NCBI GenBank assembly: GCA_037951105.1
Contig: JBAMJV010008146.1
Location: forward strand, 1-64,000
Length of the DNA: 64,000 nt
Reading direction: 5' to 3'
DNA from: Echinarachnius parma
Taxonomy: Eukaryota; Echinodermata; Echinoidea; Clypeasteroida; Echinarachniidae
The number at the start of each line of letters is the position of its first letter. The first letter of the stretch is position 1. Both the position numbers and the translations under genes were made by a program. The notes under the pieces were generated by a model. The model had not been told where the DNA came from and ran no database searches. It saw nothing but the letters and a program-made list of their open reading frames with translations. Positions 1,205 through 58,374 of this stretch are shown here, piece after piece.

Positions 1205-2870
1205 GAAGGCAAGAAGCCAACATTTATTCATTTCAATCAAAGATAAAAATACAAAATATATACAGATACATACATAATTGCATACATATATTTTAACAAT
1301 TTAGCATAAGCCATATAAAAATTAATAAAATGAAATGAAAGAACTTTAAAAAGGCCATAGGGCCTTGTGAGTAAATTCTCAGGAAGTCGTATTATTTCAG
1401 TTTGGCACAATTAATAAAATGATAATTCACAATCAACAACAATAACAAATAATAAAAAAGAATCTTATTTAAGAGGATCAAATGTATATTACAATATCAA
1501 TAATTTTGTAGAAAATGGTGTTTGAGCGATTTTATAAATAATCTTAAATTAGAATGAGACCGAATAGAACTTGGTAACATATTCCAAACATTTGGCAGAT
1601 TGAACCGAACAGATTTTTTAGCAAGAGTTGTGGTAACTTTATACATATGAAATGAATTACCTATGCGGGTCCGTATGTATGAATATTTTGATTAAGACAA
1701 AACATCTCTGAAATAATACATTTTGAAAATAATTAAAGCCAAGTAATAACATGTAGTACAAAAATAAATCATAAAACTTCAGAAAGTTCAACATTTTAAA
1801 TAATGGAGCTGAATGAGCTAATTACTTTCTGTACAAATTCGTACGGCCTTTTTCTGTAACTTTAATAATGAGTCTATAACAAATTGAGAGGAATTTCCCC
1901 ATACAACAACACAATATGACAAATGGGGCAATATCAAAGAATTATATAAATATTTCAATGCGAACAAGGGTAAGTAATGCTTAAGTTTATACAAAATTCC
2001 AATGCACTTAGAGACTTTATTAATTATATATTCAGTATGTACGCTCCAAGTTAAATGTTTGTCAATAAATACACCAAGGAAATTAACGCTATCTGATTTT
2101 TGTAACGAGTTTGAACAAATAGCTATTTCAATATTTTGAAGTGTATTTAATACAGGACTATATTTATTTAAAAATGGAACAAAGTGTGTTTTCTCAAAAT
2201 TAACTAAAAGTCATCAGCATGTCATCAGCATATAATACAAAATCAAATTTATCAGAGGATTTAATTATATCATTAATATATAATAAGAATAACAGGGGGC
2301 CTAATATAGAACCTTGGGGTACACCTTGTTGGATTGGGGTTTGAGTTGATGAACAATTAGCAAAATGTGTATTAAAGGAGTTCCACGAATACCATAATAA
2401 TTTAATTTATACAACAATATATCATAATTTACTATATCAAAGGCCTTTGATAGGTCCATACAAATCACTATCCCATAATTATTCAAAGTAATAGCAGAAA
2501 CAATTTAATTTTGTAAGTCAATTAATGCATGGGCTGTAGAATGATTACGCCTAAAACCATATTGATTATTACAAAGAATGTTAAAGTCACTAAGAAAATA
2601 AACAACACGATTAAATACACATTTTTCAAGTAACTAAAAACAAACATGGTAAAATAGAAATGAGACGATAATTTTTCAGTAAGTGAGAGTCACCTTTCTT
2701 GTAAACAGGTACAATTTTAGCAATTTTTAATTTTTGTGTTACTAAGCCAGTTTCCATAGACTTATTAAAAATATAAACCAACGGTTTTGCAATTTGATGA
2801 ATAATCCTTTTTATAATAGAAACTTTTAAACAATCATAATCATAAGAAAAAGTATTATTCATGTCACTGG
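1205..2870 (-). mobile_element. 5'-truncated, degenerate LINE (Jockey/CR1-like reverse transcriptase and 3' UTR)
   Basis: Minus-strand translation gives consecutive reverse transcriptase blocks in different frames. The first has PVYKKGD and KNYR followed by a degenerate Pro/Ser block (2626-2862). Next is a QYGFRRNHST block (about 2520-2580), then MDLSKAFD (about 2440-2480), then [13 protein letters not shown] (about 2290-2335) and the catalytic YADD (2221-2232). In-frame stops and shifts separate them, so the copy is dead. The AT-rich tail down to about 1205 looks like a LINE 3' UTR. The 5' end (endonuclease, ORF1) is missing, as is usual for truncated LINE insertions. The clade call (Jockey/CR1 group) rests on motif wording and is tentative; that it is a non-LTR reverse transcriptase is secure. 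Confidence 0.85.
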
Positions 2871-3469
2871 TAAACTTGTAAAACTATAAAAGTCCAAGTG
2901 CACATCATGACGTGTCTAAATTTAAAAATAGCCCTAGAATCCAAACGCCTTAACAAAAATCAATGATTATGGTATCATTTTGTTGGAAAAGAAATGTTCT
3001 ACTCAATTAAATACAAACAATGACATTTGATCGATGATGTTGATGAAATTAACGATTGTAGGTGTTGTATGTGGCAAGAAATATCACAATGTAAGTTAAA
3101 TAAAAAGTTTTTACCTTTTGCACTTTACTTCACCATGACATTGCAACATCCTATTTGTTTTCAAATACAGTCAACTCTGTATTAGTTTAATCCGTTGGGG
3201 TTGAATGAATTGCTTCATCTAAGAAAGAAATTGATAACATCTTTGACTTAGGCGATTATTAGACTTATGCAAATTCGACTTAAGCAGAGTTGACTGTAGG
3301 TCTACTTATACAGTACTATCTGTATAGTCTGAACTCATAAAAATATGCAGACATATCGTCAATATTTTCCGATGCAGTCTATGTACGACATCGCTGTAAG
3401 AAATACCCCAATTCTCAGTACAAGTCGCTTCATGAAGGCTTCATTACCCCAACGAATTAGCTGTGCCTT

Positions 3470-3980
3470 TGCGTAGATGGCCCGGTCAAAGACAACAGCA
3501 ACGCTTTCCAGCTGTAGTTGGTATGGTCAAGACAGTACCCATATCTGTTGGGCTTGCATCTATGATGGATAAATATCCAATCTTGGAGTTTGGCCGACTT
3601 GATCCCTTGACGCCATCTCAGAAAATGGCAAATGATTAAGAATGACCCCAACTTAGTTCATCCAGTTTTTGTATTCACCTGTCCGACAGTCAAATATCTA
3701 GTGAATGCCTTGTAGCATGAGAGGTGGTATCGTAACTCAATGGCTACACAGTCTCAACCTTTGATGTGCCTTTAGATATCTTCATTGGGTTTGTTCTCAG
3801 CTGCCTTTATCAAACAGTCACTCTACGCACATCATACTTATTTCCTTTACAGCTAGACGCACTGACGATCGAGGAAGGAGGATCTTGCTGAATGCCCGCA
3901 ACGAGTTCGATCTTAGTCTCTTCTGCGGAGGATCTGTTGATAATCTTCCATCTCCCAGGTCTCCATTTGCCCTTTAACAA
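3470..3980 (+). pseudogene. Possible eroded coding sequence, unrecognised
   Basis: On the plus strand, stretches read like protein but are interrupted by stops: a piece with VVGMVKTVPISVGLASMMDK and LTPSQK at about 3520-3638, and a piece with HPVFVFTCPTVKYLVNAL at about 3657-3712. A third piece, with RILLNARNEFDLSLFCGG, runs to a stop at about 3976. It is preceded by an acceptor-like tract (tttcctttacag, ending about 3852). I do not recognise the protein. It could be a decayed gene or exons of an unannotated one; chance is possible. Confidence 0.2.
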
Positions 3981-4053
3981 ATGAAAGACAGAAAAGAAAG
4001 AGGTGGAAACAAAGAGGAATTAAGTACTAACAAAACTAGATGGATCTTCAATT

Positions 4054-4783
4054 ATGCCTCCGCCATCACGCAATTTTAAAGTGATCCATGTAAATTATCA
4101 TGCCCAAATAAACATGCGCTGAATTTATAAGGCATATTTGCATATATTTTTAGTCATGTGACCGTGACCTTTGAACTCATGACCCGAAAATCTAATCACA
4201 TCATTGGCTCTCCAAGATACATACATAAACCAAGATTGGTCTGAATCCGCCAATCGGACCATGAGATCATGAGCTATTTTTGCATGTATAATGAGCCCTG
4301 TGATCTTTGACCTAAGGACCCCAAAATCTAATCAGATCATTGACTTCCCAAGATACATACATATATACTAAGTTTGGTAAAAATCTGTCCATTAGTTCTT
4401 GAGATAACGCAAGAACAAGCTATTTTTGCATATTAGTGAGCCCTGTGACCTTTGACCTCATGACCCCAAAATCTAATCAGATCATTGGCTCCCCAAGATA
4501 CATACATATACCAAGTTTGGTAAGAATCCATCATTAGGTTCTTGAGATAATGCAAGAACAACCTATTTTTGCATATACGATGAGCCCTGTGACCTTTGAC
4601 CTCATGACCCCAAATTATAATCAGATCATTGTCATTCCCATATGTACACTCATACCAAGTTATTCTTGAGATATCGCGAGAATGAAAACGGGACGTACGT
4701 ACAAACGGACAGACGTACGGATGGACGGATGGATGGACAACCCGAAAATATAATGCCTCCGGCCACTTCGTTGGTGGAGGCAT
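4054..4783 (+). repeat. Dispersed repeat A, copy 1: ATGCCTCCGCC termini and tandem nuclear-receptor-like sites
   Basis: The block begins with ATGCCTCCGCC and ends in its inverted copy (GGTGGAGGCAT), with a small terminal hairpin at 4753-4783. Inside, a unit of roughly 130-150 bp repeats. Each unit holds a variant of TGTGACCTTTGACCTCATGA, followed by CCCCAAAATCTAATCAGATC and an ACCAAGTTTG...TCTTGAGATA segment. TGACCTTTGACCT occurs exactly at 4446-4458 and 4590-4602. Its reverse complement is two AGGTCA half sites spaced by one base (DR1). It looks like a non-autonomous transposon; no coding potential. Confidence 0.75.
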
Positions 4784-6316
4784 ACAAATAATAAATCAAA
4801 GAAACAAATGTCTTTACATAATAATTAGACAAATAATCAAATAGAAAACAAAATGAAGTCTGCAGTTGCTGTCAAGTAAACTGATGTTATGAAGAACAAT
4901 TAGCTTTTCATCAAATTTTTCAAGAACATAATGTATAGTGCACCAAGGACTGATAAATGTTAAATGCCCATCTGATAATCGGTTACAGCATTAATACAAA
5001 ATGTTAGAATATTATGTTAGAAAAATTATCAAAACTACACAAACAAATATAAACACTGATAGCTGATACAAAATATATTTTAAGAATTTAAGTACCGTAT
5101 CCGTTTCTTTTCCAGTGCAGCCAAAGCTCTCCTAACCTTAGAGATGTCTGTGAAGTGGCTGTAGTAAGAGCTGAAAATCATGATAGAACAGGGAATAGAG
5201 GTTAATATATTGCCTTCCTTTTTTTCACTGTGGTATATAATGTATGTATCCTTGTAAATGAGCTTACAAAGGGCACTTTGTCATCAATGATCACAGCTCC
5301 TGATCCAAATTTTAAGACGAAAGAAGAAAGAGCATCAGAATTATTTAACATATATACAGCAGGACACCACATATTTGTTTTTTGCTGGCAAACCAGACTC
5401 TATCTTTCCTAGAGGCCCTGAAGAGAAATTTCCTGCCCCAAGACTTTTATTTCATGAACAAAGTCTGCACTATTCAAAATATCACTCTGTCCAGATAAAA
5501 CTGTGATTTTAGATGAAGCCTGACATGGGAGAAAACAATAATTTTAAGATTTTGTCAATGACAGGTTGAAAATATCCTTGCCCTATTAGGCCACCAAAAT
5601 ATGACTTCTGCAATAACACTCGCCCCAGTCCAGTTTGAGTGTCGAGTCATGGTATACGGTCACTGTTCCCACCCATATAAGTCAAGGGGTCAACTGCATA
5701 TGCTGCAGTAACCCCTTCCTCTGTTGCCATGTAAAATACTAAGTTAAAGCTGCACTCATTGTTTAAGAACTCAAACTTGATGTTTTTCACACCATTGTTC
5801 AATGTGATGCTGACATGAATAGGTCTTATATTTGGCTTTGCCTTTGTTATGTTTATCTTAAAAGTAGTTCAAAGCTGGCTGCCAAGAATTATTTATAGTC
5901 ACAAGCCGATCTACATTCTTTGTTTTACTTTGGAATGCAATCTACTGGGCAGAATCATAAACATGTAAACAACTGGTCTACTTTGGTATTTAGAAGGCAA
6001 TAATGTTTTGTCCCTTTGAAGAGATCCAATATAGATTAGATATTCACAAATAGGAATTAAAAGTACTTTTTACATCATAAGGCTTGATGTACATGTCAAA
6101 ATGTGTTTAATTTTATCCTACTACTATCCACAGATGTTTTTAAAATGAAATACTTTATTATAGCTATAAATATTTTACAATTTTTTGTTAATCTTGTTAA
6201 CTGTGTTTACTGTGTTAACTTTATTACATAATTGTGTTAGAGTGCACTGTTCCCCCCGCCCCTGCCCCATTCTACTTACTAAACCGGTATTCGTATTATA
6301 TATCGTATTAATAATG
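4784..6316. other. No gene recognised
   Basis: AT-rich single-copy-looking sequence. Short open frames (for example 5230-5412) have no motif or family resemblance that I can see. The segment at 5580-5760 is less AT-rich than its surroundings but gives no convincing exon in any frame. Confidence 0.5.
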
Positions 6317-10138: not shown

Positions 10139-10966
10139 CTACAACGTAGGAGGGTCGAAGGTCACCCCGTAGAGCCGACGGCCGTTCACCTTTCCCGCCT
10201 GTAGGACCTCCAGCCAGGGCTCCCTCCTCAGTCCGGCTACCAGGTAACCCACGTCCCCGATGTGAGTAGGGGTACTCAGCTCTGCATCCGGATGAACGGG
10301 CAGATACGGGGCGTCCGTTTCCAGCAACAAACGGTTGAGGGGAACGCTCCGTAGCCCGTCCAGCTGCTCCGCGTTGAAGGTCCTAGCCAATCCTGAAAAG
10401 CTGAAATGGGTGCCAGGGAACGCTTGCCTCCACCTGCGAACCAACTCCCGGTTTCCTGAAAAGCAGTGTAAGTGAATGCGCTGGGCGGACAGACAATACT
10501 CTTGTAGAATGCGCAGGCACCTACTATGAATATGGGTTCCACAGTGATCAGAAACCTGGCCCCTCAGATGGAGGATGAGAACCTTGCCCAGTACTCCGTA
10601 TCGCAAAACCCTCCTCAGGAATTGCTCCTGCACAGGCCACGTGTCGGGCTTCTCGGCATGGTCCAGTCCCAGCTCGCTGACTCCCACAACCCGCGGATCC
10701 GCCAATAGGTGCTCGAACTGGTGAAGCTGCCGATCCGTGAGCTGTGGGATCTTCTTTGGGTGAACACCTATGGCCAGCTTGCAGTTCGCGGCTGGAAATT
10801 GCACCCGGTGGAACTCTTCGGGGTCACACATGTTGTCCACTCCACCCACAAGTTGGATCGGGTGGTCCGGGCTACGCACGGTGGACACTGCTCGAAGTCG
10901 ATGCGCCAACCGGTTGATATGGAAGTGAGCGTCAAAGGCCTCGGGTAGTGCGGATTCCGTTGAAGG
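10139..10966 (-). pseudogene. TatD-family metal-dependent nuclease domain in the Gypsy third coding region
   Basis: TatD-like proteins are TIM-barrel metal-dependent hydrolases with DNase activity. All the family's metal-ligand positions are visible in order. DAHFHINR at the start carries the HxH pair. SELGLD carries the Glu, and LILHLRG a His. HLHCFSG carries a further His, and LLETDAPYLP the Asp. GVHPK near the N-terminus and the length of about 270 residues also fit. The frame is open to a TAA at 10967-10969, immediately upstream of the domain, which separates it from the Ala/Pro-rich repeat region in the same frame. The nearest methionine-like start would cut off the HxH pair, so the domain was probably read as the end of a longer protein. 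It lies inside the LTRs, after integrase, on the element's coding strand. In human the nearest relatives are TATDN proteins. Ordinary Gypsy elements do not carry this domain. Its role in the element is unknown. Confidence 0.85.
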
Positions 10967-12282: not shown

Positions 12283-13028
12283 TTAAATGCCCCTCCTCCG
12301 CCCCTTCCGCTTACACTTCGGGCAATAATACCTACGCAATTTCACCCCAACGCTAGGCACCACATTCACACACCTGCCATGAAACCACTCATCGCAGCGA
12401 TCGCATTGAATCATAAATTTTCCATCGTCCGGCCTCCGACATAAACAATATGACTCTTTGTCTAGCCGCACTGGGACTGATTGTCCTGCCGCACAACGAG
12501 TCTTACACTTCTTCAATCTATCATGATTCACTGTGAATACAGCGTTTCTATGGCGCAAGCGAAATACGACCGGGGACAAGCAGGCTATCACCTGAGCGGG
12601 CCCTTTCCAGGGGGGCACAATTTCTTGCACCTCCCTTTCTGGATGGCCAGGTCTAGGTAATACACCAAGTCTCCTTCCTTATACTCGTGTATATTCACCC
12701 TAACATCATGATCCCGCGCCATACGAGCTTGTGTAGACTTTAATTTACTACGAGCAGTCTCATGTGCTTGCTGCATTGCCTGCGTGAGCTGCGCACAATA
12801 TTCATTAACCGGCACCTCCTGCTGTGCCACAGGCAAAGGGAACATTAAATCAGCGGGCTGGTTCGTTTCCCTTCCCATCATTAACATATTTGGGGTTGCC
12901 CCTGTACTACGGTTAACTGTCGATCTGATCGCGCTCGCCAGCTGAGGCAAAAACTTGTCCCAACTGGATTGAGACGTGCCTATATAACAGCGTACCGCGT
13001 CCATTAGTGTCCGGTTGTACCGCTCTAC
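12283..13028 (-). pseudogene. Integrase C-terminal region with PHD finger (detached from pol by a stop and a frameshift)
   Basis: In frame directly below the pol stop, the sequence resumes at VERYN and runs to 12588. It includes a typical Gypsy integrase C-terminal part (GATPNMLMMGRE, then DVRVNIHEYKEGDLVYY). A frame change at about 12610-12625, next to a run of six G, leads into 12630-12283. There WKGPAQVIACLSP and VNHDRLKKC complete the integrase tail. A C4-H-C3 PHD finger follows: YCLCRRP, MIQCDRCDEWFHGRC, YYCPKC. The Trp in CDEWFH and the Tyr and Met before the zinc ligands match the aromatic-cage positions of H3K4me3-binding PHD fingers. The protein ends in a basic tail (KCKRKGRRRG). Chromoviral Gypsy elements carry a chromodomain at this spot; a PHD finger there could serve the same targeting role. 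That function is inference. Confidence 0.85.
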
Positions 13029-16000
13029 TTAACCATTCGAGGATGGGTGATATGGTGTCGTTCGTGCTTTATGAATCTTCAATATTTTACACAACTCCAC
13101 AAAAAGCCTACTCTCAAAATTCCGCCCCTGATCTGAAAAGATCTGTAGGGGGTAACCAAACCTACAAAAAAACTCATTCACCGCTGCTTGCGCGGTGACT
13201 TCGGCAGTTTGCGAGGGGAGGGGAATACATTCAACCCATTTAGTGAACTGGTCGACCATCATAAGTATATGTTCGTTTCCTTTTCCAGTCTTTGGCAACG
13301 GGCCAATAAAATCGATATGCACCCGCTCCATGGGAACCCCCGCGTGGCATTTGGTCATCGGGACCCGACTGTGTCTATTCCCTTTCTTGCAACTCCCACA
13401 CTCCGGGCAAGATTCTACATGCTGCTTCACATCTCTTACCAACCCATACCAATAATACTTAAGCTTAATTCTTTCTACCGTCCTATTAACTCCTGAGTGA
13501 CCCGCTGAGGGTAGATCGTGATTGTTAGTCACCACCTGTTCCCTCAGCTTTCTTGGAACTAGGATCCTAAGTTCGTCATCTATTTTCCACCAAATAATAT
13601 TATCCTTCAAGCAAAACAATTGACGATTTAACCAAAGCCACTTCTCCTCAGGCCCCCATAACATAATTTCATATTCCCTTGGCTCCACTTTATTCTTCAG
13701 CCAATCTAACAAAAACTTAAACACTGCATCTTGTTCCTGCTCCGTTCGGAGCTGAACGTCCGGGCCTACTTGTCCTAAAGTTACTATATCTATACTCCTT
13801 TCCTCGTCCTTATCTACCAAATCCAAATGGGCCCCTCCCCCAATACTACCGGATGTAACACAAAACACCAACGGCTCTCCCGCAGTTTCCTCGCCTACTC
13901 CTACTACCCTTACCCCATGCTGGTGGCCTATGCCTGGTGCTTTATTCTTACTCTCATCTAGAGGTATAACCTTAACACCTCCATCACACTCTAGCTTAGG
14001 ACCCGACTCAGTTTCCGAAGGTTGCCTTATCTTCTTCCTAAAAGCCAAGGGTACTACGTTGTCCACCTTCCTCTTGAATGGTCCCCAGTTTTGATGAGCC
14101 CGAGTGCAATAATGGCAGCCACCACAGGGGAGTGTAGGCGGAGAAATGCCGGGCTTATACTCATTGCAAGGGTCCATGTGGTCCGGAATCCGCGAGAGCG
14201 CGTCCGCGTTACCATGCTTACTCCCAGGACGATGGACCACCGTCATATCGTATTGACTCAACTCCTCCAGCCAACGTGCTATTTGCCCTTGTGGATTCTT
14301 AAAATTTAATAACCATGTTAGGCTGCTGTGGTCCGTACGGACTATGAAAGGCTTTCCTAACAAATAGTGGCGGTACTGGCGAGTAAACAGCACTACTGCC
14401 AATAATTCCCTTCGAGTGACACAATAGCGACGTTGGATTGGCGTGAGTGAGACACTACCATATGCGATGACCCGTTCCTGCCCGTCCTGTAACTGAACGA
14501 GCTCGGCCCCTAACGCGACATCAGAAGCATCCGTATCCAAAATAAATGGATCCTCCTGATTGGGGAGCACTAGAAAGGGTGCAGACGTTAAGAGGTTCTT
14601 AATGGCTTCGAACCCTTCCTGCTGTGCATCCCCCCAATGAAACGCTTGCTTGCCTGTTATGCAATACAGTGGGACTGCAGCGCGAGCATAGTCCTTAAGA
14701 AAAATACGGTGGTAATTCACCAACCCTAGGAATTGCTCCACCTCGCGTGTAGTACGTGGGGTGGGCCACTCCTGCACAGCTTGCACGTGCTCTTTCTTAA
14801 GGTGCATGCCCCTACTATCAACATTGCGTCCTAGGAACTCGGCTTCTCTTTGAAATAAAGCACATTTCTTGGGCTTAAGTTTTAGCCGGTATTCAATGAA
14901 CCTTATAAACACTTGCCGTAGATTGGCTATGTGTTCATCGAATGACCGTCCTAGCACGACAATATCATCCAGAAAGGCTAACACAGTGCTCCAGTTCAAC
15001 CCATGCAGCACTAAATTCATAGCGCGCGAAAAAGTTGCCGGAGCATTGCACAAACCAAATCCCATGCGTACAAACTCGAACAGGCCGTATCGAGTGATAA
15101 ATGCAGTCTTCCTCCTATCGGCTTCATTCATTTTGATTTGCCAGTAGGCCGAGTTAGCGTCTAGCTTTGAAAACCAGACGTTCCCCGCCAGAATGTCCAA
15201 ACATTCTTCAATATTTGGCAGAGGATATACATCTTTCCTTGTGACCGCATTTAACCCCCGATAATCAATGCACCAGCGTACATTGCCGTCCCGTTTACGT
15301 ATCAAGACCGGCGCGGAAGCCCACTCAGAAATAGAAGGCTGAATCACACCCGCCTGCAACATCTTATCTAAATGCGCTTTCTCCTCGTTTACAAAACTCA
15401 TTGGAGTTCGCCGCATCTTTAACTTTACTGGTGCCGCGTCACCAGTTTCTATCGCGTGCTCAATGGCAGTAAATTCCCCTAAATCAAATTCACCGCGCGC
15501 AAACACGTCCTGGAATTCAATGAGTAATTCCTTTAACTCATTCTGCTGCGCTAGCGGCAATGTTTCACTAGACCGCGACCACAAATTCTCCAAATGCTCG
15601 GGCATTTGGACGTCTTCATTATCTACCTCCACTTGGCACGCGCCAGAAACTGGAGCGAGTGTATCCTCGTCTACTATTTCCTCAGCATATCCTAGTACAC
15701 TTCCCTGCTTTAAGTGTACATGATGTTCGCTAACATTCAACCCATATACACATATATCCTTCCCCCTATCAAAAACGATTCGGGGAACCCACACGGGCAA
15801 ATCCCGAGTCGCCTCGAAGATGAACTGCGACAGAGAGCTGTCCGCACTGCCTACAATTCGTTTGGCACAGCCAGGAGGGATGATTGTATCCTTACAAACC
15901 AATACTCTAGCTAGCCTCACTGGCTCGGCCCTCGAACCAAATTGCAGTGCTAACACCTCCCCATCCAGTTCGAGCAAAGATTGCTGAATCTGTATATTCG

Positions 16001-16865
16001 CATTATAGCGGCGCAAAAAGTCTATGCCAAGTAGCATATCGTCACCTATAGCTGCCACATACAACTGCTCACTAAAACATTTGCTGCCTAACGACAAGTT
16101 GACTGGCCCTATTACGGAGCCGGCCATTCTCATTTCACGCCCGGCCGCATGCAAAACGATAGATTTTAAAGTCGGTGGCTTTGGGCTAAGCAGCTCGTAT
16201 ACAGAATCGGAAATAATAGTTACCTCCGCCGCGGTATCTACTATTGCTCGAACCTCTACGTTCTCCACTCGCATCAGTACGCTCATCATTGAATTTGACC
16301 TTAACTGATTGACGACCACCTCCTCGACGTCATCCACCTCCTCAGGGAGTACTCGAATACACTCCTCAAATTTATGCGCTAGCTCAAATTTACTCAAATC
16401 GAGTGTAACTATAGATTGATCACTAGGTGGGGAGAACTGCGCCTCGTGATCAACTAGCCCATCAATTATGTCGCTTATGACTTCCCTAATTAATGAATGA
16501 CTGTCAGTGGCGGCTTCGCTGAATATTGCGGGTGCGTCATCCAGTGAGTCCACCACTTGATCTACCATTTCACTTAGCAAATCCGTTAATGTGATCAACG
16601 TATCCATATCTCCTAATTCTAGAGTTTGATCGACGATCAGGGCTTCTAACGTTGGCTCTTCCAAAATTATTTCCCCGGCCATTTCCTCATTCCCTAAATC
16701 AATAGATTTAACAATCAGGGTTTCTATTTTTAACTCGTTAAAAATAGTTTCCCCAGTTGCGCCATCATTCCTTAAATCCAAATTGTGAGCTATGACCCGG
16801 GTTCCTAAATCTCTCTGATTTTCTTCCCCGATCATAGACTTTATTTTTGTATCTAATAATATATT

Positions 16866-17003
16866 AGTCAGGGCTTCCAATTCCACCTGAACTGTTTCCC
16901 CGGCCAAATTCATCTGTTTTTCGGCCCCAATGCACTCTTTTTCCATATCCATTACTGTATTGGTCAGGGCTTCCAATTCCACCTGAACTGTTTCCCCGGC
17001 CAA
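16866..17003 (-). repeat. Tandem duplication in pol N-terminal region
   Basis: A segment encoding LAGETVQVELEALTN occurs twice, about 99 bp apart, in the same frame. Shorter degenerate versions (AGEIILEEPTLEALI, TGETIFNELKIETLI) follow further along. The region looks like an expanding spacer rather than a folded enzyme domain. Confidence 0.75.
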
Positions 17004-17032
17004 CGGCAATAATAATCCTAACTTTTGACCAT

Positions 17033-18676
17033 CTAAGTGTCGGATCGGGGAGAGTCGGCCTCGTCCCCCGACCCACCCTCGTTTCCCTCCCTTTCCAGGA
17101 ACGAAACGCTCTTTTCAGCTTTCCGAGGGCAATCGCGCTTAAAGTGACCAGTCTCTCCGCACAAAAAGCATTTATAACGAGAGGGCGACGTGGCAGGCGA
17201 CCTGGAACGAGTTGATAACCGCTCCAGAGCTTCTATCACGCCCCCCAGTTTGTTTTCAACGGTGTTCAAACGGGTCTCTATGGTCCGTTCTATGGCCACA
17301 AAACGCTTCTCTACTTTATCCTCGTATTCACTGGTTCGTTTTTCACGCGAACCAGTTTCCACCCGCGGAGGATCTACTGGCTTACTCGGTACGCTTGGAC
17401 GGGCACTAACCTGGCGTACGTCTATATCGGGTTCAGCGCGCTCGTTGCCGTAGCCCACCTGCCGTGCGCCGCGCCGAGGCCTACCGTACATCACGCGGTA
17501 AGTGTGCTGATACCAGCGCACCGCATCTAACGCCTTCTCCAAACTAACTGGCCGCGAGTTAATAGCATATTGGCCTGCCTCTAAGTCAGAGCACCCCTGG
17601 CAAAATCGGAGGATCAGTTGTTTCTGAATCAAACCTTCCGGCATGCCAGGAAATGCTTGTAACGCTAGCTGCAGCAGTCGGTCCGCCCACTCGAGGACCG
17701 GCTCGTCTGCTCCCTGCTTTGCATAATTAAATTGCATTTGACTAGCCTCTGGCAAATCACGCAGCGCAAAACGCCTCTCTAGTTTGCTCACCAAATCAAA
17801 ATATTCAATATAGGGCTCGCGCTCCACCACCATAGCATAGTACTCACTAGCCTTCCCACCCAAGCACCAACACAAATTATTCTTTCTTTGCTGCCCGTTC
17901 CACCTATACTCATCCGCGTAGGCAGTGAATTTTGTCAGGAATGCCTGCCAACTCCCCTTCCCCTCATACAAAATCGAACGCGGCAACGCGGGTGGTGGTC
18001 TTAAAGCATTCGGATCTACCACGGGGGGCATACCAAAACCTGCACGGCCTGCGGGGGATGGAGGCTGTCCTACGGGGGGCCCTGACCCTGGGGGTTGCAT
18101 TGGAATAGGCCTAGAGACTACTGGGGGACACCCGCCATTAAACTGTGGGGGGTCTGGCCACCCCATTCCTGGAGGGGGGCGATGGGAAACCCCTCCCTGA
18201 AACTGAGGAATTTGCATCCCAGTACCCACACGTGGGGGAAGTGGAGGAAGTTCTAACGGGGGAATATCCATAAACGCAGGATTCCTCATCGGGGTCGCCC
18301 GACCAAAATGGAATGGGGGCGCGTTATTCCTTTCCTCCCGGCCACTACTCAGGGGTGGATTATTACCGTTCCCGTCACTCATTGGAAGATGGGGCCTAAA
18401 GTCAAATTGATCCGCCACCTGTTCAATATTCTTAATATGCGGCAACCGCATAAAATCCTGACGAGTCAAATTTGTACATGCCCTACGCAAATCCAATATT
18501 CGCTGTGCAGTAGCATCGCCTATACCTTCAACATCGGTGAGGTCCCGCGGTGAGCACACATTAATCAACACTTTTCCCTCATACATTTTCATAACACGCC
18601 TGCTGCTAGCAATCAAATCCTTAACGAACACACACCAAGTGCAAATACTCATCCACCAGGTATACTCAATGCACAA
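17033..18676 (-). CDS. gag: Gag polyprotein with helix-hairpin-helix, capsid and zinc knuckle
   Basis: 547 codons, intact. Residues about 35-80 (VLINVCSPRDLTDVEGIGDA...TAQRILDLRR) match a ComEA-like helix-hairpin-helix, with VEGIGDATAQRI as the hairpin. A Pro/Gly-rich stretch follows (about 100-220, PPLELPPLPPR type). Residues about 235-400 are a retrotransposon capsid domain, with WQAFLTKFTAYADEY, ALRDLPEASQMQF and QKQLILRFCQG as landmarks. Near the C-terminus one CCHC zinc knuckle, CFLCGETGHFKRDC, would bind RNA. The end is acidic. Gag would form the particle in the cytoplasm and package element RNA. The first ATG is used provisionally; MKMYEGK some 29 residues on is an alternative start. 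Confidence 0.9.
   Translation of the reverse strand: MCIEYTWWMSICTWCVFVKDLIASSRRVMKMYEGKVLINVCSPRDLTDVEGIGDATAQRILDLRRACTNLTRQDFMRLPHIKNIEQVADQFDFRPHLPMSDGNGNNPPLSSGREERNNAPPFHFGRATPMRNPAFMDIPPLELPPLPPRVGTGMQIPQFQGGVSHRPPPGMGWPDPPQFNGGCPPVVSRPIPMQPPGSGPPVGQPPSPAGRAGFGMPPVVDPNALRPPPALPRSILYEGKGSWQAFLTKFTAYADEYRWNGQQRKNNLCWCLGGKASEYYAMVVEREPYIEYFDLVSKLERRFALRDLPEASQMQFNYAKQGADEPVLEWADRLLQLALQAFPGMPEGLIQKQLILRFCQGCSDLEAGQYAINSRPVSLEKALDAVRWYQHTYRVMYGRPRRGARQVGYGNERAEPDIDVRQVSARPSVPSKPVDPPRVETGSREKRTSEYEDKVEKRFVAIERTIETRLNTVENKLGGVIEALERLSTRSRSPATSPSRYKCFLCGETGHFKRDCPRKAEKSVSFLEREGNEGGSGDEADSPRSDT
17045..17087 (-). promoter_or_regulatory. Programmed -1 ribosomal frameshift signal between gag and pol
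   Basis: On the minus strand the heptamer GGGAAAC at 17087-17081 is phased as G GGA AAC in the gag frame (Gly-Asn codons), a canonical X XXY YYZ slippery site. Nine bases downstream, TCGGGG (17071-17066) can pair with CCCCGA (17050-17045) to form a GC-rich stem. Pol is open in exactly the -1 frame through this site, and gag ends at TAG 17035-17033. Phase, spacing and stem all agree. The efficiency is unknown. Confidence 0.8.
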
Positions 18677-19021
18677 TAATAATTACTAGTTGCACACTTT
18701 CGATCACCATGCAATATAAAACCAAATGTTCAGACCGCACTCAAAATGTACTACTAATTTCCAATTACTATCATACAATCCCTTTAAACTCTAAACAATC
18801 AAGAATCATATCTTCAATTTAACCATGAGACCCCTCCCAATATTACATTATTGCTTCACTTAATTAAAAGCCCTACAAATATTTCCACCCAATTTATTGA
18901 ACTTCCCAATTTTAGTGAGCACCCCACAAAGACTATTAAACCCTTATATATAATTCCCAATTCTTACTAACAATTACTGACTTACTAGAACACAAGAAGC
19001 GTTGCTCTCGCTCGGGATGGG

Positions 19022-36225: not shown

Positions 36226-38844
36226 TTATGTCTAATTAATAACATCGGACTGACATCAATTTTACTACCATTTACCGACCTCCTAAATTGCTATCATTTC
36301 CGACATCAGCGCGATATTAGCACGACGTCACATTGCACATGTCATATTCATGTCGGATTATTGACATCGGCTCAACATCAACGTAATGACTATAAGCCGA
36401 TTCGATTCATTGTTGCCCATTCTGATATCGACCCGACATCAATTTCACAACCATTTACCGACCTCTCTAATTGCTACCAGTTCCAACATCGGCGCTAAAT
36501 TAGCCCGACGACATTTATGAGATGTCATATTCATGTAGGACTATAGACATTGGTGCAACATCGATTCGATGACCATTTGCCGAGTTGTTTCATAGCTGCC
36601 AGAGGCTGACATCGGCAGGATATCGCTATGGCGTCATCATTGAGATGTCATATTTATGTCTAATCTTTGACGTCGGCCCAACATCAATTTTACAACCATT
36701 TACCGACCTCCTAAATTGCTATCAGTTCCAACATCGGCGCGATATTAGCCCGACGTCATTCATGAGATGTCATATTCATGTAGGACTATAGACATTGGTG
36801 CAACATCGATTCGATGACCATTTGCCGACTTGTTTTATTGCTGCTAATTCTGACATCGGCAGGATATCGGTGTGACGTCATAATTGAAATGTCATATTGA
36901 GGTTCAATTAATAACATTGGGCTAATGTCGGGGTGGCGGACATTTTAATGTCGGGCCAACGTCAGGATTTGATGTTGGCCCTTTGTTGGGTAACTGACAT
37001 TGGGCCAGTGCCAACAATAATGGTAAGTCAACATCACAAAATGACATTGGGCCAATGTTGGGCTGGCGGACATTTTAACGTCGAGCCCACATCAGAATTT
37101 GATATCTCTCCTATGTCAGGATTCGGTGTTGGGCCTTTGTCGGAAATTGTCACTGGCTTAACATCACACAATGATGTTGTGACAATGTTTGGCTAGCGGA
37201 AACTTTAACCTAGAGCCCACATAATGTTATGTTGGGCCAATGTCATGAGTTGATTTTGGGCCATTGTCAGAAATTGACGTTAGGCCAATATCACAAAATT
37301 ACGTGGTTACGATATTGGGCTGGCGGACATTTTAACGTCGAACCCACATCAGAATTTGATATCTGTCCTATGTCAGGATTCGGTGTTGGGCCATTGTCGG
37401 AAATTGACATTTGCCCGACATCACAAAATGATGTTGGGACAATATTGGGCTGGCGGACATTTTAACGTCGGGCCAACATCAGAACTTGATGTTTTCTCAA
37501 CGTCAGGAATCGAGGTTGGGCATACGTTAGAACTGACATTGGGCCATTGTCAATAATTGATGTTGGGCAAAATGACGTCGGGTCAGCATTAACAAAAAAA
37601 GGCGCCGCGCTGATGTTGGGCTGGCGGACATGTTTTCGTCGCGGTGACGTCGCATGTTTAATGTAGGCCCAACGTCCTCTTACAACGGATTTTACATCGG
37701 CCCAACGTTGGCACAATGCCAGGTGGCTAACAGGGTTATTCCGTTGTGCTTCCTAAGAATTAGAGAAAAGTGAGTATACAGGTATTGTTAAAAGTGCCTA
37801 ATTAACAGACAAATCTCAACTTTTTGTCAAACTTTGAATCCCTCCCATACGAGTTCGGCTTAGAATGATATGTACACCATGCATCCATAATTAGTCGTCA
37901 TTTATGAGATGTCATGTTCATATCGGACTATTGACATTGGGGCAACATCAATTTTATGACCATTTGCCGAGTTGTTTCAAAGCTGCCAGAGGCTGACATC
38001 GGCAGGATATCGCTATGGCGTCATCATTGAGATGTCAAATTTATGTCTAATCATTGACGTCGGCCCAACATCAATTTTACAACCATTTACCGACCTCCTA
38101 AATTGCTATCAGTTCCAACATCGGCGCGATATTAGCCTGACGTCATTCATGAGATGTCATATTCATGTCGGACTAATGACATCAACGCAACATCCATTTT
38201 ATGACCATTTGCCGAGTTGTTTCATTGCTGAATGTCCTTACGTCGGCGTGATATCGGCCTGTCATCATATTGTAGATATCATATTGATGTCCAATTAATA
38301 ACATTGTCCCGAGATTACTTTCACAACCATTAAGCGACCTCTTAAATTGATACCAGTTCCAACATCGGCGCGATATTAGCCCGACGTCATTTATGAGATG
38401 TCATATTCATGTCGGACTATTGACATTGGCGCAACATCAATTTTATGACCATTTGCCGACTTGTTTCATAGCTGCCAGAGCCTGACATCGGCAGAATATC
38501 GCTATGGCGTCATCATTGAGATGTCATATTCATGTCTAATCGATTTTTATTGGGCCATTGGCGGAAATTGACGTTGGGCCAACATCACAGAATGATGTCG
38601 TGACAATGTTGGGCTAGCGGACATTTTAACCTCGAGCCGAAATCATAATGTTCTGTTGATCCAATGTCAGGAGATGATGTTGGGCCATTGTCGGAAATTG
38701 ACGTTATGCCAATATATCACAAAATGACGTAGTGGCGATGTTGGGCTGGCGGACATTTTAACTTCTAGCCAATCTCGATATGCCGACATCCGGCCAACAA
38801 CTTTTGACATCGGCCCGACGTCAGGTGGCTAGCTGGGTAGAGGC

Positions 38845-38852
38845 ATGCAAAT
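38845..38852 (+). promoter_or_regulatory. ATGCAAAT octamer near the NLR first exon
   Basis: An exact POU-factor octamer lies 100 bp before the start codon and 8 bp outside the composite transposon end. An 8-mer arises often by chance, and a splice acceptor-like tract (ending 38880) suggests this spot may be intronic rather than promoter. Confidence 0.2.
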
Positions 38853-38944
38853 AAATCTCCTTTTTCTTTCTTCTCTTCAGGTCGGTTGACAAGGAGAGAA
38901 GACCAGTTTTGCAGCTGAAGGCGTGACCTGAGCACCTGTCAACC

Positions 38945-39664
38945 ATGCCTGTCTCTCTGTGTGACTGGAGAGCCAGGATTGGGAGATTCATTCCAAGACC
39001 TCAAGCCGACAGCGAAACGTGTGGCTGCAAGACTACGAACAATGAGACGAGAATCCGTGAGAGTGATCAGAAGAAAAGGGGGAAGAAATGGCTGAATAGG
39101 GAGAAAAGAAAAACTAAACGGATGTTGTTGAAACGACTAAAAATCAAAAGGACAAAAAAGATGATACAGAAGCTTCAACGCCAGATTAAGAAGTGTAAGC
39201 GGGGGAAAGCAACAAAATCACCGAAGAAAACACCAGGAGACAGTCGTGTTCGGGAAAACAAACTCAAATACAACACACAAACAACCAACAAGGACCAAGC
39301 GAACAATTATTCCAGCTCATCAATTCTGAGAAACCATCCAACAGACAAGGAGTCTCTATCCACGGACAAAAAACAACACCAACCGGGAGACACAGGTGTT
39401 CGTGAAAACAAACTCACAGACAACACAAAAACAACCAACAAGGACCAAGCGAACAATTATCCCAGCTCATCAATTCTGAGAAACCATCCAACACTCATCA
39501 TAATTACAGATCTGATTCAAACAAGAACTAACTGCATTGACGAAAACCGAAACTCACCACCCGAACGTGAGACTTCGAAGCCAGGATATTCATCGAGTAG
39601 TTCTTCTGGAATCTTCAGTCGATGTAGGGACCATGTCCGACGCCTTACATCGCAAGCTAGAAAG
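38945..39664 (+). CDS. NLR gene exon 1: basic N-terminal protein released by 2A
   Basis: 240 codons ending in phase 0 at a GTAAGC donor (39665). The start is supported by A at -3 and by an in-frame TGA at 38924-38926; TTCTCTTCAG at 38871-38880 may be the acceptor of a 5' UTR exon. Residues 1-20 read SLCDWRARIGRFIPRP. Residues about 45-97 are strongly basic (KKRGKKWLNREKRKTKR, then KRLKIKRTKKM) and could be helical and nuclear-targeted or nucleic-acid binding. A 37-residue segment occurs twice, 50 residues apart (VRENKL..NT.TTNKDQANN and SSILRNHPT). A Ser-rich stretch follows. No signal peptide or membrane segment is evident. The WRARIGRF opening resembles, as far as I recall, the start of proteins encoded by 2A-bearing LINE elements of marine invertebrates. 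Function unknown. Confidence 0.7.
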
Positions 39665-40164
39665 GTAAGCTACTTGTCAAACGTCTGTGTTTATGTATGC
39701 CGTCGATACTGTTTAATGTGATAGGAGGTGATCTATGCTATTACATTAGGGAATATATACATCGCAAGTAATGGTTGTAAAATAATCAAGAGTATTACAT
39801 ACGTGTGAATACAGAATACGATGACAATTGTCGAAACAAATATTAGCTATGTCAGCTATTTGATGCAGACTGAGTGACATCAAGATAAATAATTAACCAA
39901 CACAAACGTCAAAAGAGAAATTGACCGTCCAAATAAAAGTTGATCAACCTTTCACTATAACTACCAAATCTCTATTATTTTGCCGTCTACAGGCTTAACT
40001 CAAACTTCTCTTTTAGACCTTCCATACAACGTATATTCATAATAATCATTTGTTCGATCATGTCAAAGAGGTCAGAATAATTAATGTGAACATTCATATC
40101 TATGTTTCTATTCCTAAATTAGAGTAATACATGAAATGCGATTTTCCCTCATTATTTAATGCAG

Positions 40165-40319
40165 AAAACTACCTATCGGATGTCGGATGATAAGAAGCAC
40201 ACATCTCGTTTGAAGAATAGCTGTAAACGTCTCTGGAAACTGTTCATCTCTTCACTTCACCTCACGAGGGCGGGAGACGTAGAAACCAACCCTGGGCCCA
40301 AGTCAGCGTCCAAGAATGA
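40165..40319 (+). CDS. NLR gene exon 2: 2A ribosome-skipping peptide
   Basis: Acceptor TTATTTAATGCAG ends at 40164 and a GTAAAT donor begins at 40320. Read in the frame of exon 1 it encodes a basic stretch, then LWKLFISSLHLTRAGDVETNPGP, of which the last eight residues match the D-V/I-E-x-N-P-G-P consensus exactly, with the usual hydrophobic helix before it. Skipping would occur between Gly (40294-40296) and Pro (40297-40299). The product upstream would be 284 residues; the receptor downstream would start with Pro. If the donor is not used, TAA at 40321-40323 ends translation eight residues after the skip site. N-terminal 2A peptides are known in sea urchin NLRs. Confidence 0.88.
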
Positions 40320-40869
40320 GTAAATATTCAGCCATACAATTTGAACAGAATTACGAATATGGAAACACGTTCTTTGTTTATTTATTTTTAACAGATTTTC
40401 CCCTTATTTGTGTATAACAACTAAGCCATCTGGACTTCTCTTATATAGCTACGCCGCAAGCTCAGGCCGTTGCAAAAAGCAGTCTGTACGATTACGTTTA
40501 CATTCAAAATGTGCCGTATCAATTAATTATTTATTAAGTAAGCATTGGTAAAATTAATGTCAACAATGTTTTTTAGGTGTATATTTTAATAAGAAGAACA
40601 TACATATTTCCTTCCTCAAATTATTACTAGAATGATTGTCCTCAAAATTAAGCGGGGTTTAATTTATGATTATGTTTTAATAAATCGTACACCGTTATAC
40701 ACAATGTGTACTTGATCAGTCATTTGCAGTGTTGTGTGACTATTACACTACATAAATAAATTAGAAAGCATGCTATTGTGAGTAGTCAGGAAACGTGGAT
40801 TATGTAAATAAAACAATACCTTTACATAAATGTATTGTTTGTTTTTGTTTCATGTTAACTTTGTATCAG

Positions 40870-41138
40870 TTTTGATGCCATTCTGCGTATCTTGGCTGGA
40901 GAAGTAACTGACAATGACAACATTGAAGACTTGGGAAGAGCGCTGGGATTCCAGCTAGGTGATATAAAGAGCTACATAAAAACCAACATGCGATTCGAAG
41001 AAGTGACCGGCAGAGGGACACTGCATATGCTACGGAAATGGCACCTCAACGTGGCGGAAGCTGATGAAATGTCTGTCCTTAGAGAAGCACTGGTGAAGGC
41101 GAACCTACGTAGGATAGCAGATGAACATCTACCGGGAG
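40870..41138 (+). CDS. NLR gene exon 3: Death domain
   Basis: Acceptor TTTGTATCAG (to 40869) and GTGAGT donor (41139). The phase 2 junction with exon 2 keeps the frame, giving an Asp codon across the intron. The about 85 residues form a Death domain: FDAILRILAGEV, IEDLGRALGFQ (the conserved LGR.LG), then RGTLHMLRKWH and VLREALVKANLRRIAD. Death domains at NLR N-termini recruit signalling adaptors through homotypic contact. It begins only about eight residues after the 2A proline, so it would be the N-terminus of the released receptor. Confidence 0.88.
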
Positions 41139-55838: not shown

Positions 55839-57436
55839 ATAATCCATCACTAACACTCCCGGCTCTCTCAGACAAACAGGTTGAAGACTGCGCTAGAGAA
55901 ATAATGTCTTTCTATCGGAAACATATCTGTAAGATAAGAGTGGACCCTCTCGATCATGATTCCATCCGTCCATTAAAAGATATATTTACCAATCTTACGA
56001 TGCTCACCGGAAATGGTGACGATTGGAAAGAACTGAAATATGAAGACCTTACAATTGACAACAATGGGGAACCAGCCAAACGACTCCTGGTACAGGGAGA
56101 GGCTGGGGCTGGCAAGACCACATTCTGTGCTAAGATAGCATGGGACTGGGTGAACAAAACTATATTCCACAGTTTCAACCTCGTTGCTTTAATTCCACTG
56201 CGAGAATCTGAGAATTTTACAGTTGGGGAAATATTAAAGGGGTATCTCAACAAAAACAATCCAGTTCAAGCCAGTCAGCTTGAAGAGTACATTGAGTTGA
56301 ACCCAAATAAGGTCTTTATCATCTTTGATGGGCTAGATGAGTTCAAGAAACGTATTGTACCGTCAAATAGCAATACAGCGAGGGCAGAGGGTATGATTTC
56401 ACAAGAACATGCAATAGATATCGTTACAACTGTAATGTCAGATCAACTAGAAAACTGCCTTGTTCTGGTGACGACTCGACCTTGGAAAGCAGACGAGATC
56501 AGGAGAAATAAAAAATTGAGAGAATTGTATCCTTTCATCCGCATTGAAGGTTTCAATAAGAATAATATAGCAGTATACATAGGGAAATACTTCAAAAACA
56601 ACACAACTAAAGCAAATAGTCTAATCCAGTTCATACAAGAAAATGACATAGTCTCAGAACATATGGCCCCTTATCCCCTTTATATATCTATGTTATGTTT
56701 GATGTGGAAAGAGCAAGACGAGGATAAACTAAGAGGAATAAGACGATTGCAAACATTTTCGCAGCTATTCAAGGAAATTTTCGTATTCTTGAAAGAGCAT
56801 TTTCTCCTTAAAGGTATGAGTTTAGATGATCCAGCGCGAAAAGGACGTCTCACAGTTATTGAGGACCATTTGAAGTCAATAGCTAAAATCGCATTCAATG
56901 GGTTATTGCAAAACAACATGACTTTCAAAGAGGAGGATTTCAAACACTGTCCTGATGCCATGGTAACAGCATGCAAGATAGGAGTACTTACCAAAGAAAA
57001 AAGGCTAGTCCCGAGAGTGGAATGGCATGATAAACCCCAGTCCCGGATAGAGTGTGCAGTAGACTTCCCACATAAGCTATTTCAGGAGTTTGTTGCGGGG
57101 ATGTACCTGGATGTCCTATATCACTCAAACCGTACTGAATACAACAGAGTGGTCGAAGAGGAAGTGCTCAATAAGAGAAAGGAGTTCATGTATTTGCTAT
57201 ACTTTGCTACATCAATGAGCAAGACGGTTGGAGTCGATATCATTAGCAGGCTGTATAAACCTGGTAAAAACAAGAATTTTTTAGTTGATGTCGCCTTTGA
57301 ATGTCATCAGAGAGAAGATGCAGAGTTCATGGAGTTGGTGAATCAGAAGGTTGTTAACAGGGTTAAATCATTGACCATAAACAGGAAGAAAAAGGTTCAC
57401 ACCATACTTGGCTACTTGTTCTTGACATCAACTCTG
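55839..57436 (+). CDS. NLR gene exon 5: NACHT NTPase domain
   Basis: One long exon, acceptor CTTATCCTTTGCAG (to 55838), donor GTAAGG (57437), entering in phase 1 and leaving in phase 0; 533 codons without a stop. The pre-NACHT part has FYRKHICKIRVDPLD and IFTNLTML. Walker A is GEAGAGKTT (about 56096-56122), Walker B is FIIFDGLDEF (about 56313-56345), and the sensor-like LVLVTTRPW follows. The later part (APYPLYISMLCLMW, FPHKLFQEFVAGMYLD) matches the NACHT-associated winged-helix and superhelical region of NLRs. NACHT domains oligomerise in an ATP-dependent way on ligand sensing. The family is greatly expanded in sea urchins and amphioxus. Confidence 0.93.
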
Positions 57437-58142: not shown

Positions 58143-58304
58143 GCTGGGTTGAAAATCAGTGACAGAAAATGCAGAGTGCTACTCTCCAAGGCGCTAGCAG
58201 AGACTATCTGCACATCTACCTCACTCAAGGAGATTACTATGTACCAATGTTCTATGCACGAAAGCTTCTATGATATCCTTGCAATCAACGAACATCATTC
58301 CAAG
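58143..58304 (+). CDS. NLR gene exon 6: first LRR-type exon
   Basis: 162 bases, phase 0-0, between CTTAATCACAG and GTAGAG. It encodes 54 residues with a leucine-rich spacing (RVLLSKALAETICTSTSLKE, then ITMYQCSMHESFYDILA). Modular phase 0 exons of this size are how echinoderm NLR LRRs are typically built. No further LRR exon was found before the window ends, although 5.7 kb remain. Either a long repeat-filled intron follows or the gene ends with a short exon I cannot see. Confidence 0.7.
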
Positions 58305-58374
58305 GTAGAGAAGTGAATACACGAGTGTATTTTGATCCATAGTATTTTGCTACTCTATCATTGCGCACCCAATA

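What the first reader, a model, noticed from the sequence alone, without database searches (positions are those of the whole stretch)
38945..41138. NLR receptor gene whose first product is a separate 284-residue basic protein released by a 2A peptide
Exon 1 (phase 0), exon 2 and the Death exon join in one frame, and exon 2 carries a perfect DVETNPGP. Translation should give two proteins in equal amounts: a Lys/Arg-rich protein with a duplicated 37-residue block, and a receptor whose Death domain begins about eight residues after its N-terminal proline. N-terminal 2A peptides in sea urchin NLRs are known and have been discussed as signal-like sequences. A long, basic, possibly nuclear partner in front of the 2A is a different design, a one-transcript link between an immune receptor and a second factor.
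Basis: partly seen in the sequence, partly recalled or inferred. Interest (0 to 1): 0.9.

Follow-up and report, generated by a model that had tools for sequence, protein, structure and literature searches.

The report
Sea urchin immune genes encoding two proteins
This gene, apparently from a sea urchin, carries a virus-like "2A" skip signal that should make one messenger RNA yield a separate 284-residue leader protein plus an immune receptor, and the same layout recurs in many related genes and in other urchin species, so it looks like a real gene design whose leader proteins have no known job.

Summary
Exon 1 (38945-39664), exon 2 with 2A (40165-40319), the Death exon (40870-41138) and a NACHT exon (55839-57436) join in one 914-codon frame with GT-AG sites. 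It is not a single oddity: of 49 strong exon-1 relatives in this genome, 48 have a 2A exon downstream on the same strand (opposite-strand control 0 of 49) and 46 then a Death exon; the 49th lies at a contig end. All 48 keep the 2A core. Some may be allelic copies. Predicted proteins of Strongylocentrotus purpuratus and two Lytechinus species show the same order (36 of 127 fetched). A second class in this genome has a membrane-helix-like segment ahead of the 2A (13 of 13 loci read, picked for having 2A). The "Lys/Arg-rich, perhaps nuclear" character is lineage-specific: the 36 homologues have upstream pI 4.5-8.4. "Equal amounts" is overstated. Short 2A leaders of sea urchin NLRs are published (Roulston 2016), which also mentions 2A "within the N-terminal region"; I saw no description of the long upstream family in the parts read, and one key paper (Rao 2025) could not be read. 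StopGo activity, expression and upstream function are inferred.

The parts
38945..39664 (+). Exon 1, 240 codons, body of the upstream product
   Evidence: 49 strong relatives in the genome
38945..39004 (+). N-terminal module MPVSLCDWRARIGRFIPRPQ
   Evidence: MPV..C.WR.RIG.F invariant in 20 aligned exons; MPVS[LV]..WR in 34 of 36 homologues of three other urchins (alignment)
39083..39211 (+). Lys/Arg-rich predicted long helix (residues 47-89)
   Evidence: AlphaFold2, mean pLDDT 94-96 over residues 51-80, whole exon 53
39232..39343 (+). Duplicated block, copy 1
39382..39493 (+). Duplicated block, copy 2 (92% identical)
39665..40164 (+). Intron 1 (phase 0)
   Evidence: GT-AG
40165..40319 (+). Exon 2, carries 2A; donor GA|GTAAAT
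40243..40299 (+). 2A/StopGo peptide FISSLHLTRAGDVETNPGP; predicted bond skip between 40296 and 40297
40320..40869 (+). Intron 2 (phase 2)
   Evidence: GT-AG; same acceptor place and phase in 8 of 8 locus sequences checked
40870..41138 (+). Exon 3, Death domain
55839..57436 (+). Exon 4, NACHT domain, in frame with exon 3
   Evidence: (NACHT E=1.1e-20)
58146..58310 (+). Probable LRR-region exon (boundaries approximate); further matches on the same contig at 67894-68070 and 71909-72085, outside the window
   Evidence: tblastn with homologue tails, best E 4e-6 in the window and 2e-4 beyond it

Best explanation
This is an intact-looking NLR immune-receptor gene of a sea urchin, one of a large family in which a single spliced mRNA encodes two proteins around a 2A (StopGo) peptide. 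The ribosome makes the upstream protein (MPVSLxxWRxRIGxF module plus a variable body), fails to form the Gly-Pro bond at NPG|P, releases it, and in most cases goes on to make a Death-NACHT receptor, probably with LRRs, that begins with proline. Shown: gene layout, in-frame splice phases, recurrence in the genome and in three other species, intact 2A cores, coding constraint on exon 1. Inferred: StopGo activity, expression and function. Committed guess for function: the upstream product is a real co-made partner that places or scaffolds signalling near where its receptor is made; its body has been swapped between clades (basic helix here, membrane helix in a second class, Ser/Thr/Pro-rich and mostly acidic in S. 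purpuratus and Lytechinus), while the N-terminal module stays fixed.
For: 48 of 49 strong exon-1 loci are followed by a 2A exon on the same strand within 12 kb, 46 by Death, 24 by a listed NACHT; opposite-strand control for the 2A exon 0 of 49. The 2A core is intact in 48 of 48 (matched by hand). Exon 1 of 19 copies: no stops, median dN/dS 0.53, 162 of 162 usable pairs below 1; residues 1-95 0.44, 96-190 0.75, 191-240 0.59. Death acceptor at the same place and phase in 8 of 8. 36 of 127 fetched homologues have the 2A more than 150 residues in (177-372 in the 31 shown), 34 of them with MPVS[LV]..WR; 34 of 36 are listed with NACHT. The upstream product keeps 183-315 aa across species, which a disposable leader would not need; short 2A leaders exist in the same receptor family.
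Against: No transcript or protein data. The exon 2 donor is directly followed by an in-frame TAA, so intron retention would give only the upstream protein with a short tail. The upstream body is mostly predicted disordered and fast evolving, so a partner function is a guess. Some copies look broken: C7289 with stops and C6238 split over two frames, an exon-2 match with a stop in C4249, the 2A of C455:234636 out of frame with its own upstream part, Death of C6260 with a stop. Several loci are near-identical pairs, perhaps alleles or recent copies, so independent genes are fewer than 49. Homologue models are predictions.
Confidence: 0.6

Rival explanations
1. 2A-gated targeting: the functional form is the minority in which StopGo fails, so the receptor keeps the upstream part as a location tag (membrane, basic/nuclear), while the majority is untagged. 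This extends the dual-targeting model published for short SpNLR 2A leaders.
For: Published dual targeting of a short SpNLR 2A leader, estimated about 80% active in vitro (PMC4981915). Upstream bodies here look like different location labels: basic helix, membrane helix.
Against: Exon 2 is less signal-like than the published leaders: peak 12-residue hydropathy 1.02 in the window and 0.04-1.02 in the copies scored, against 2.3-3.1 for two S. purpuratus short leaders, though a short leader of this genome scores only 1.41. In the membrane class the N side is net positive in 13 of 13, which suggests N-in topology and would put an unseparated receptor in the lumen; the charge next to the helix is ambiguous.
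Confidence: 0.25
2. The upstream product is a disposable leader; what matters is the 2A itself, e.g. coupling receptor synthesis to the state of translation.
For: Fast-evolving, mostly disordered middle (dN/dS 0.75). Roulston et al. propose a stress-dependent outcome through eEF2.
Against: N-terminal module kept across species and upstream length kept at 183-315 aa; short leaders would suffice and exist.
Confidence: 0.12
3. Exon 1-2 and the receptor are mostly expressed apart: an upstream transcript ending at the TAA after exon 2, or receptor transcripts starting downstream.
For: In-frame TAA directly at the donor in every class I exon 2 read. Exon 2 of the window has an ATG at 40180.
Against: The TAA is part of the GTAA donor itself; class II exon 2 copies run on past the 2A without it. 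Only 6 of 31 exon 2 copies have a Met 15 or more residues before the core (5 of the 31 by eye). Annotated homologues in three species carry upstream part, Death and NACHT in one protein.
Confidence: 0.08
4. The exon 1-2 segment is a retroelement piece that lies near the NLR by chance.
For: Non-LTR retrotransposons carry 2A (PMC4981915); one 2A site in this genome has a different downstream sequence (L008); one older S. purpuratus model (P0124) is listed with PF00078, recalled as reverse transcriptase, besides upstream module and Death.
Against: Death exon next in 46 of 49 loci, 2A exon on the opposite strand in 0 of 49; conserved splice phases; no Pfam match at E<=0.2 in exon 1 or 2. The other model listed for the same locus number (P0050, LOC105440782) has Death and NACHT instead.
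Confidence: 0.02

Closest known systems
Short N-terminal 2A leaders of Strongylocentrotus purpuratus NLRs (SpNLR2A; Roulston et al. 2016, PMC4981915)
   Same: Same receptor type (Death-NACHT), 2A core ahead of Death. That paper states that 85 of 241 S. [quoted passage not shown]
   Different: The leaders it studies are 26 aa and mostly predicted signal sequences; here the part ahead of 2A is 284 aa and starts with a conserved MPVSLxxWRxRIGxF module. I saw no description of the long upstream product in what I read (parts 1-2 of 6, Discussion, find passages).
Annotated long-class urchin NLRs (S. purpuratus LOC105445539, LOC100888628; L. variegatus LOC121414380)
   Same: Same order: MPVSL module, 2A, Death, NACHT; 30-33% identity over the whole model.
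   Different: Named 'uncharacterized protein' in the listing; upstream body not Lys/Arg-rich.
Viral 2A/StopGo polyproteins
   Same: One frame, two products divided at NPG|P; Leu at p7, whose change to Ala cut F2A activity to 34% (PMC12846837 passage).
   Different: Cellular, intron-containing, multigene immune receptor; p9 is Arg where F2A has Leu.
2A in non-LTR retrotransposons (Odon et al. 2013; seen only as a title in reference lists)
   Same: 2A core in a eukaryotic genome.
   Different: No reverse transcriptase or endonuclease domain was found in the exons of this gene that were scanned.

Membership tests
2A / StopGo peptide | Core (D/G/C/N)(V/I)ExNPGP | tested here: met
   DVETNPGP at 40276-40299; core definition from PMC12846837
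2A / StopGo peptide | Supporting upstream context (Leu at p7) | tested here: met
   FISSLHLTRAG ahead of the core; LHL kept in the in-frame class I copies read. Several contexts work, so this is weak support
2A / StopGo peptide | Skips the Gly-Pro bond during translation | not testable with these tools
   needs in vitro translation
NLR (Death-NACHT-LRR) | NACHT domain | tested here: met
   E=1.1e-20
NLR (Death-NACHT-LRR) | N-terminal Death domain | tested here: met
   window exon alone below the Pfam cut-off; 3 of 4 homologues above it; Fas death domain by profile; AlphaFold model of low confidence, five helices
NLR (Death-NACHT-LRR) | C-terminal LRRs | tested here: inconclusive
   matches to homologue tails by tblastn at 58146-58310 and beyond the window; not scored with an LRR model
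SpNLR2A short signal-like leader | about 26-aa N-terminal leader ending in 2A | tested here: not met
   284 aa ahead of the 2A proline; exon 2 hydropathy low
Long-class urchin NLR with MPVSL module | MPVSLxxWRxRIGxF start, 2A, Death, NACHT in one frame | tested here: met

The most novel reading that the evidence does not exclude
Sea urchins run a large set of cellular 'polyprotein' immune genes: each receptor is made with its own partner from the same mRNA, the partner carrying a fixed N-terminal module and an exchangeable body (charged helix, membrane anchor, Ser/Thr/Pro-rich tail) that decides where the pair acts, with 2A efficiency setting the ratio of free, paired and fused forms.
Probability: 0.35. 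Interest if true: 0.88.

Novelty: new variant of a known kind. Interest (0 to 1): 0.74.

Why it matters
In the passages read, 2A in cellular genomes means retrotransposons and N-terminal leaders of sea urchin NLRs, and StopGo is called rare in cellular genes (PMC12846837). A family of dozens of receptor loci with a conserved, long, probably separately released upstream protein, including a membrane class, would be a natural host use of StopGo to make two proteins from one gene. It gives a direct test of how an immune receptor is coupled to a second factor in animals with greatly expanded NLR families.

Tried and rejected
Chance open frame or chance 2A: rejected by shuffles and pattern control. 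Retroelement fragment: rejected by co-location and splice conservation. Exon 2 as a self-starting leader: not conserved. That script's acceptor rule often chose an internal AG and found none in 5 of 31 copies, so its exon lengths are not used; for those 5 I looked for Met by eye in the printed letters. A protein search with exon 1-2 alone found nothing: 280 candidates, none at E<=10; relatives came only with the full model. The search with an S. purpuratus upstream part admitted only proteins of about 547-1740 aa, so stand-alone short relatives were not searched with it. AlphaFold of exon 1 (pLDDT 53) and Death (pLDDT 60) were too weak for fold searches, so none was run. Rao et al. 2025 (PMC12338488) and Odon et al. 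2013 (PMC3708506) are not held, so the long class may be described there. Paper searches for a description. Rows dropped: exon-1 rows listed after C643 and those not listed, Death rows after C1251 (E 1.2e-13); the genome lists score a part of the candidates (exon 1: 150 of 226; exon 2: 150 of 289; Death: 150 of 508; NACHT: 81 of 648), so absence in them is weak and NACHT counts are lower bounds. The class II loci that I read were picked because a 2A site was listed nearby, so their 2A is by selection; their membrane segment is not. In one search the NACHT exon was set one base off; corrected. The species of the genome was not established; 'sea urchin' rests on the best protein matches.

Full report
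Observation. Exon 1 38945-39664 ends in phase 0, exon 2 40165-40319 in phase 2, the Death exon 40870-41138 in phase 1, and a NACHT exon 55839-57436 continues the frame: 914 codons without a stop, every junction GT-AG. The product ahead of the 2A proline has 284 residues, 32.9 kDa, pI 10.5, 24% Lys+Arg. A 112-nt block is duplicated at 92%. An in-frame stop lies at 38924, just upstream of the start codon. Matches to the LRR-region tails of homologues follow at 58146-58310 and, on the same contig outside the window, at 67894-68070 and 71909-72085.

Not chance. The longest stop-free run in 20 window-composition shuffles was 209 codons, against 264 here; none of 2000 exon-composition shuffles reached 264. 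In the 1.2-Gb genome that holds the window, 94 places encode exact DVETNPGP and none match the reversed control pattern. The 94 include other kinds of 2A site, such as short leaders (L002, L007) and one with a different downstream sequence (L008).

A family, not a single gene. The exon 1 protein matches 185 places in the genome, 150 of 226 candidates scored. By hand I merged listed rows into 49 strong loci (E<=1e-6) and 54 weak, N-terminal ones. Of the 49, 48 have a 2A exon (list) on the same strand within 12 kb, 46 then a Death match (rows to E 1.2e-13) within 10 kb, and 24 then a listed NACHT match (81 of 648 scored) within 40 kb; on the opposite strand the 2A exon is found for 0 of 49. The one without (C12464) has only 384 bases of contig downstream of exon 1. 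Of the 54 weak loci, 29 have a listed 2A exon (control 0 of 54), 3 of them a Death match to this query. Matching by hand, the 2A core of all 48 strong loci is intact; in C455:234636 it is out of frame with the rest of its exon 2. A few copies look broken: C7289 has stops and C6238 is split over two frames, the exon 2 match of C4249 has a stop, Death of C6260 has a stop. Some loci give near-identical matches (for example C621, C2832 and C13089, or C7207 and C10945) and may be alleles or recent copies, so the number of independent genes is below 49.

Constraint. Nineteen exon 1 copies have no stop; median dN/dS is 0.53 and all 162 pairs with dS 0.05-1.5 (of 171) are below 1; residues 1-95 give 0.44, 96-190 0.75, 191-240 0.59. 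Exon 2 gives 0.54 (70 of 73 pairs below 1; 13 copies), Death 0.32 (24 of 24; 8 copies, one with a stop). The Death acceptor sits at the same place and phase in 8 of 8. In an alignment of 20 exon 1 copies MPV..C.WR.RIG.F is invariant.

Other species. The 914-residue model finds 130 proteins at E<=1e-5; the 120 listed carry NACHT and, where named, come from S. purpuratus or Lytechinus. 74 of the 120 have a 2A core or the WRxRIGxF motif. Two classes appear: short leaders such as MDGFCLLYLLLILLMRSGDVETNPGP, and long ones. Of the 127 proteins fetched have the 2A more than 150 residues in; 34 of these have MPVS[LV]..WR, some after an extra annotated N-terminus; the upstream product counted from MPVS is 183-315 aa (one without MPVS counted whole). 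They come from S. purpuratus, L. variegatus and L. pictus. As the best matches to named species have about 42-44% identity, this genome is probably a further species. A search with the upstream part of one S. purpuratus protein found 26 proteins, itself included, all from urchins, 24 listed with Death; only proteins of about 547-1740 aa were candidates. Two older models have no NACHT: P0123 and P0124, the latter listed with PF00078 (recalled: reverse transcriptase) and ankyrin-type domains; I take them for mispredictions but did not test that.

The partner is not generally basic. In the 36 homologues pI is 4.5-8.4 and Lys+Arg 8-15%. In this genome there is a second class. I read 13 loci with weak N-terminal matches, chosen because a 2A site was listed nearby: all 13 have the MPVS.CEWR.RIGRF-type start and one membrane-helix-like segment near residues 55-90 (19-residue hydropathy 1.84-3.37), and the 2A core is intact in all. 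In seven loci with downstream sequence read, Death is found in 5 and NACHT in 4, one of each being L041 itself, the source of the query. The N side of the helix is net positive in 13 of 13, but charge next to the helix is ambiguous and sequons are only slightly commoner on the C side (1.87 against 1.22 per 100 residues). L056 carries two tandem 2A exons.

How it probably works. The core fits the published StopGo definition and the context keeps Leu at p7, whose change to Ala cut F2A activity to 34% (PMC12846837, passages; the alignment to p-numbers is mine). A short SpNLR 2A was estimated about 80% active in a cell-free system (PMC4981915: parts 1-2 of 6, find passages and Discussion). So most ribosomes should yield two products, with some fusion and some drop-off, not strictly equal amounts. 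The upstream body here is predicted disordered apart from one long basic helix, residues 47-89. I favour a co-made partner with its own role, because the module at the start and the length are kept while a short leader would suffice for StopGo; the swap of bodies suggests that location is what varies. This last step is inference.

Known or new. Roulston et al. report 2A in 85 of 241 S. [quoted passage not shown] I saw no description there of a long upstream product. A 2024 paper names NLRs among 2A bearers in one passage (PMC11512398, passages). Searches listed no other description; Rao et al. 2025 could not be read. I file it as a new variant of a known kind: an NLR with 2A, but with a separate long upstream protein family.

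Noticed in passing
L039-L041, L053-L062: Second NLR class in the same genome: MPVS.CEWR.RIGRF start plus a membrane-helix-like segment ahead of the 2A, 13 of 13 loci read (picked for a listed 2A site).
   Followed up: partly
L056:1-2601 (minus strand): Two tandem copies of the 2A exon about 200 bases apart in one class II locus.
   Followed up: no
L040, about 1856-4900: A LINE-like element with endonuclease-like and reverse-transcriptase-like reading frames (judged by eye) sits in the intron between exon 1 and the 2A exon.
   Followed up: no
L011 and L012, exon 1: First about 97 residues of exon 1 identical between two loci while the rest differs, as in gene conversion.
   Followed up: no
window 12283-18682, minus strand: LTR-retrotransposon-like gag-pol reading frames (zinc knuckle, reverse transcriptase, integrase; judged by eye).
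   Followed up: no
window 10139-10966, minus strand: Reading frame resembling a TatD-type hydrolase (judged by eye) beside the retroelement.
   Followed up: no
window 37001-38860: Dense degenerate repeats (by eye) directly upstream of exon 1.
   Followed up: no
G000:C10545:31854-37741 (minus): Weak exon-1-type N-terminal match (E 0.004) inside a 794-aa open frame, with Death and NACHT matches downstream on the same strand: perhaps an unusually long upstream part; no 2A exon listed there.
   Followed up: no
L002, L007: A short 2A leader class (MAAA.SPCSS...GDVETNPGP) with its own ATG and no exon 1 match in the held upstream 1.5 kb.
   Followed up: partly
P0123, P0124 (S. purpuratus): Older protein models with upstream module, 2A and Death but other domains instead of NACHT.
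   Followed up: no
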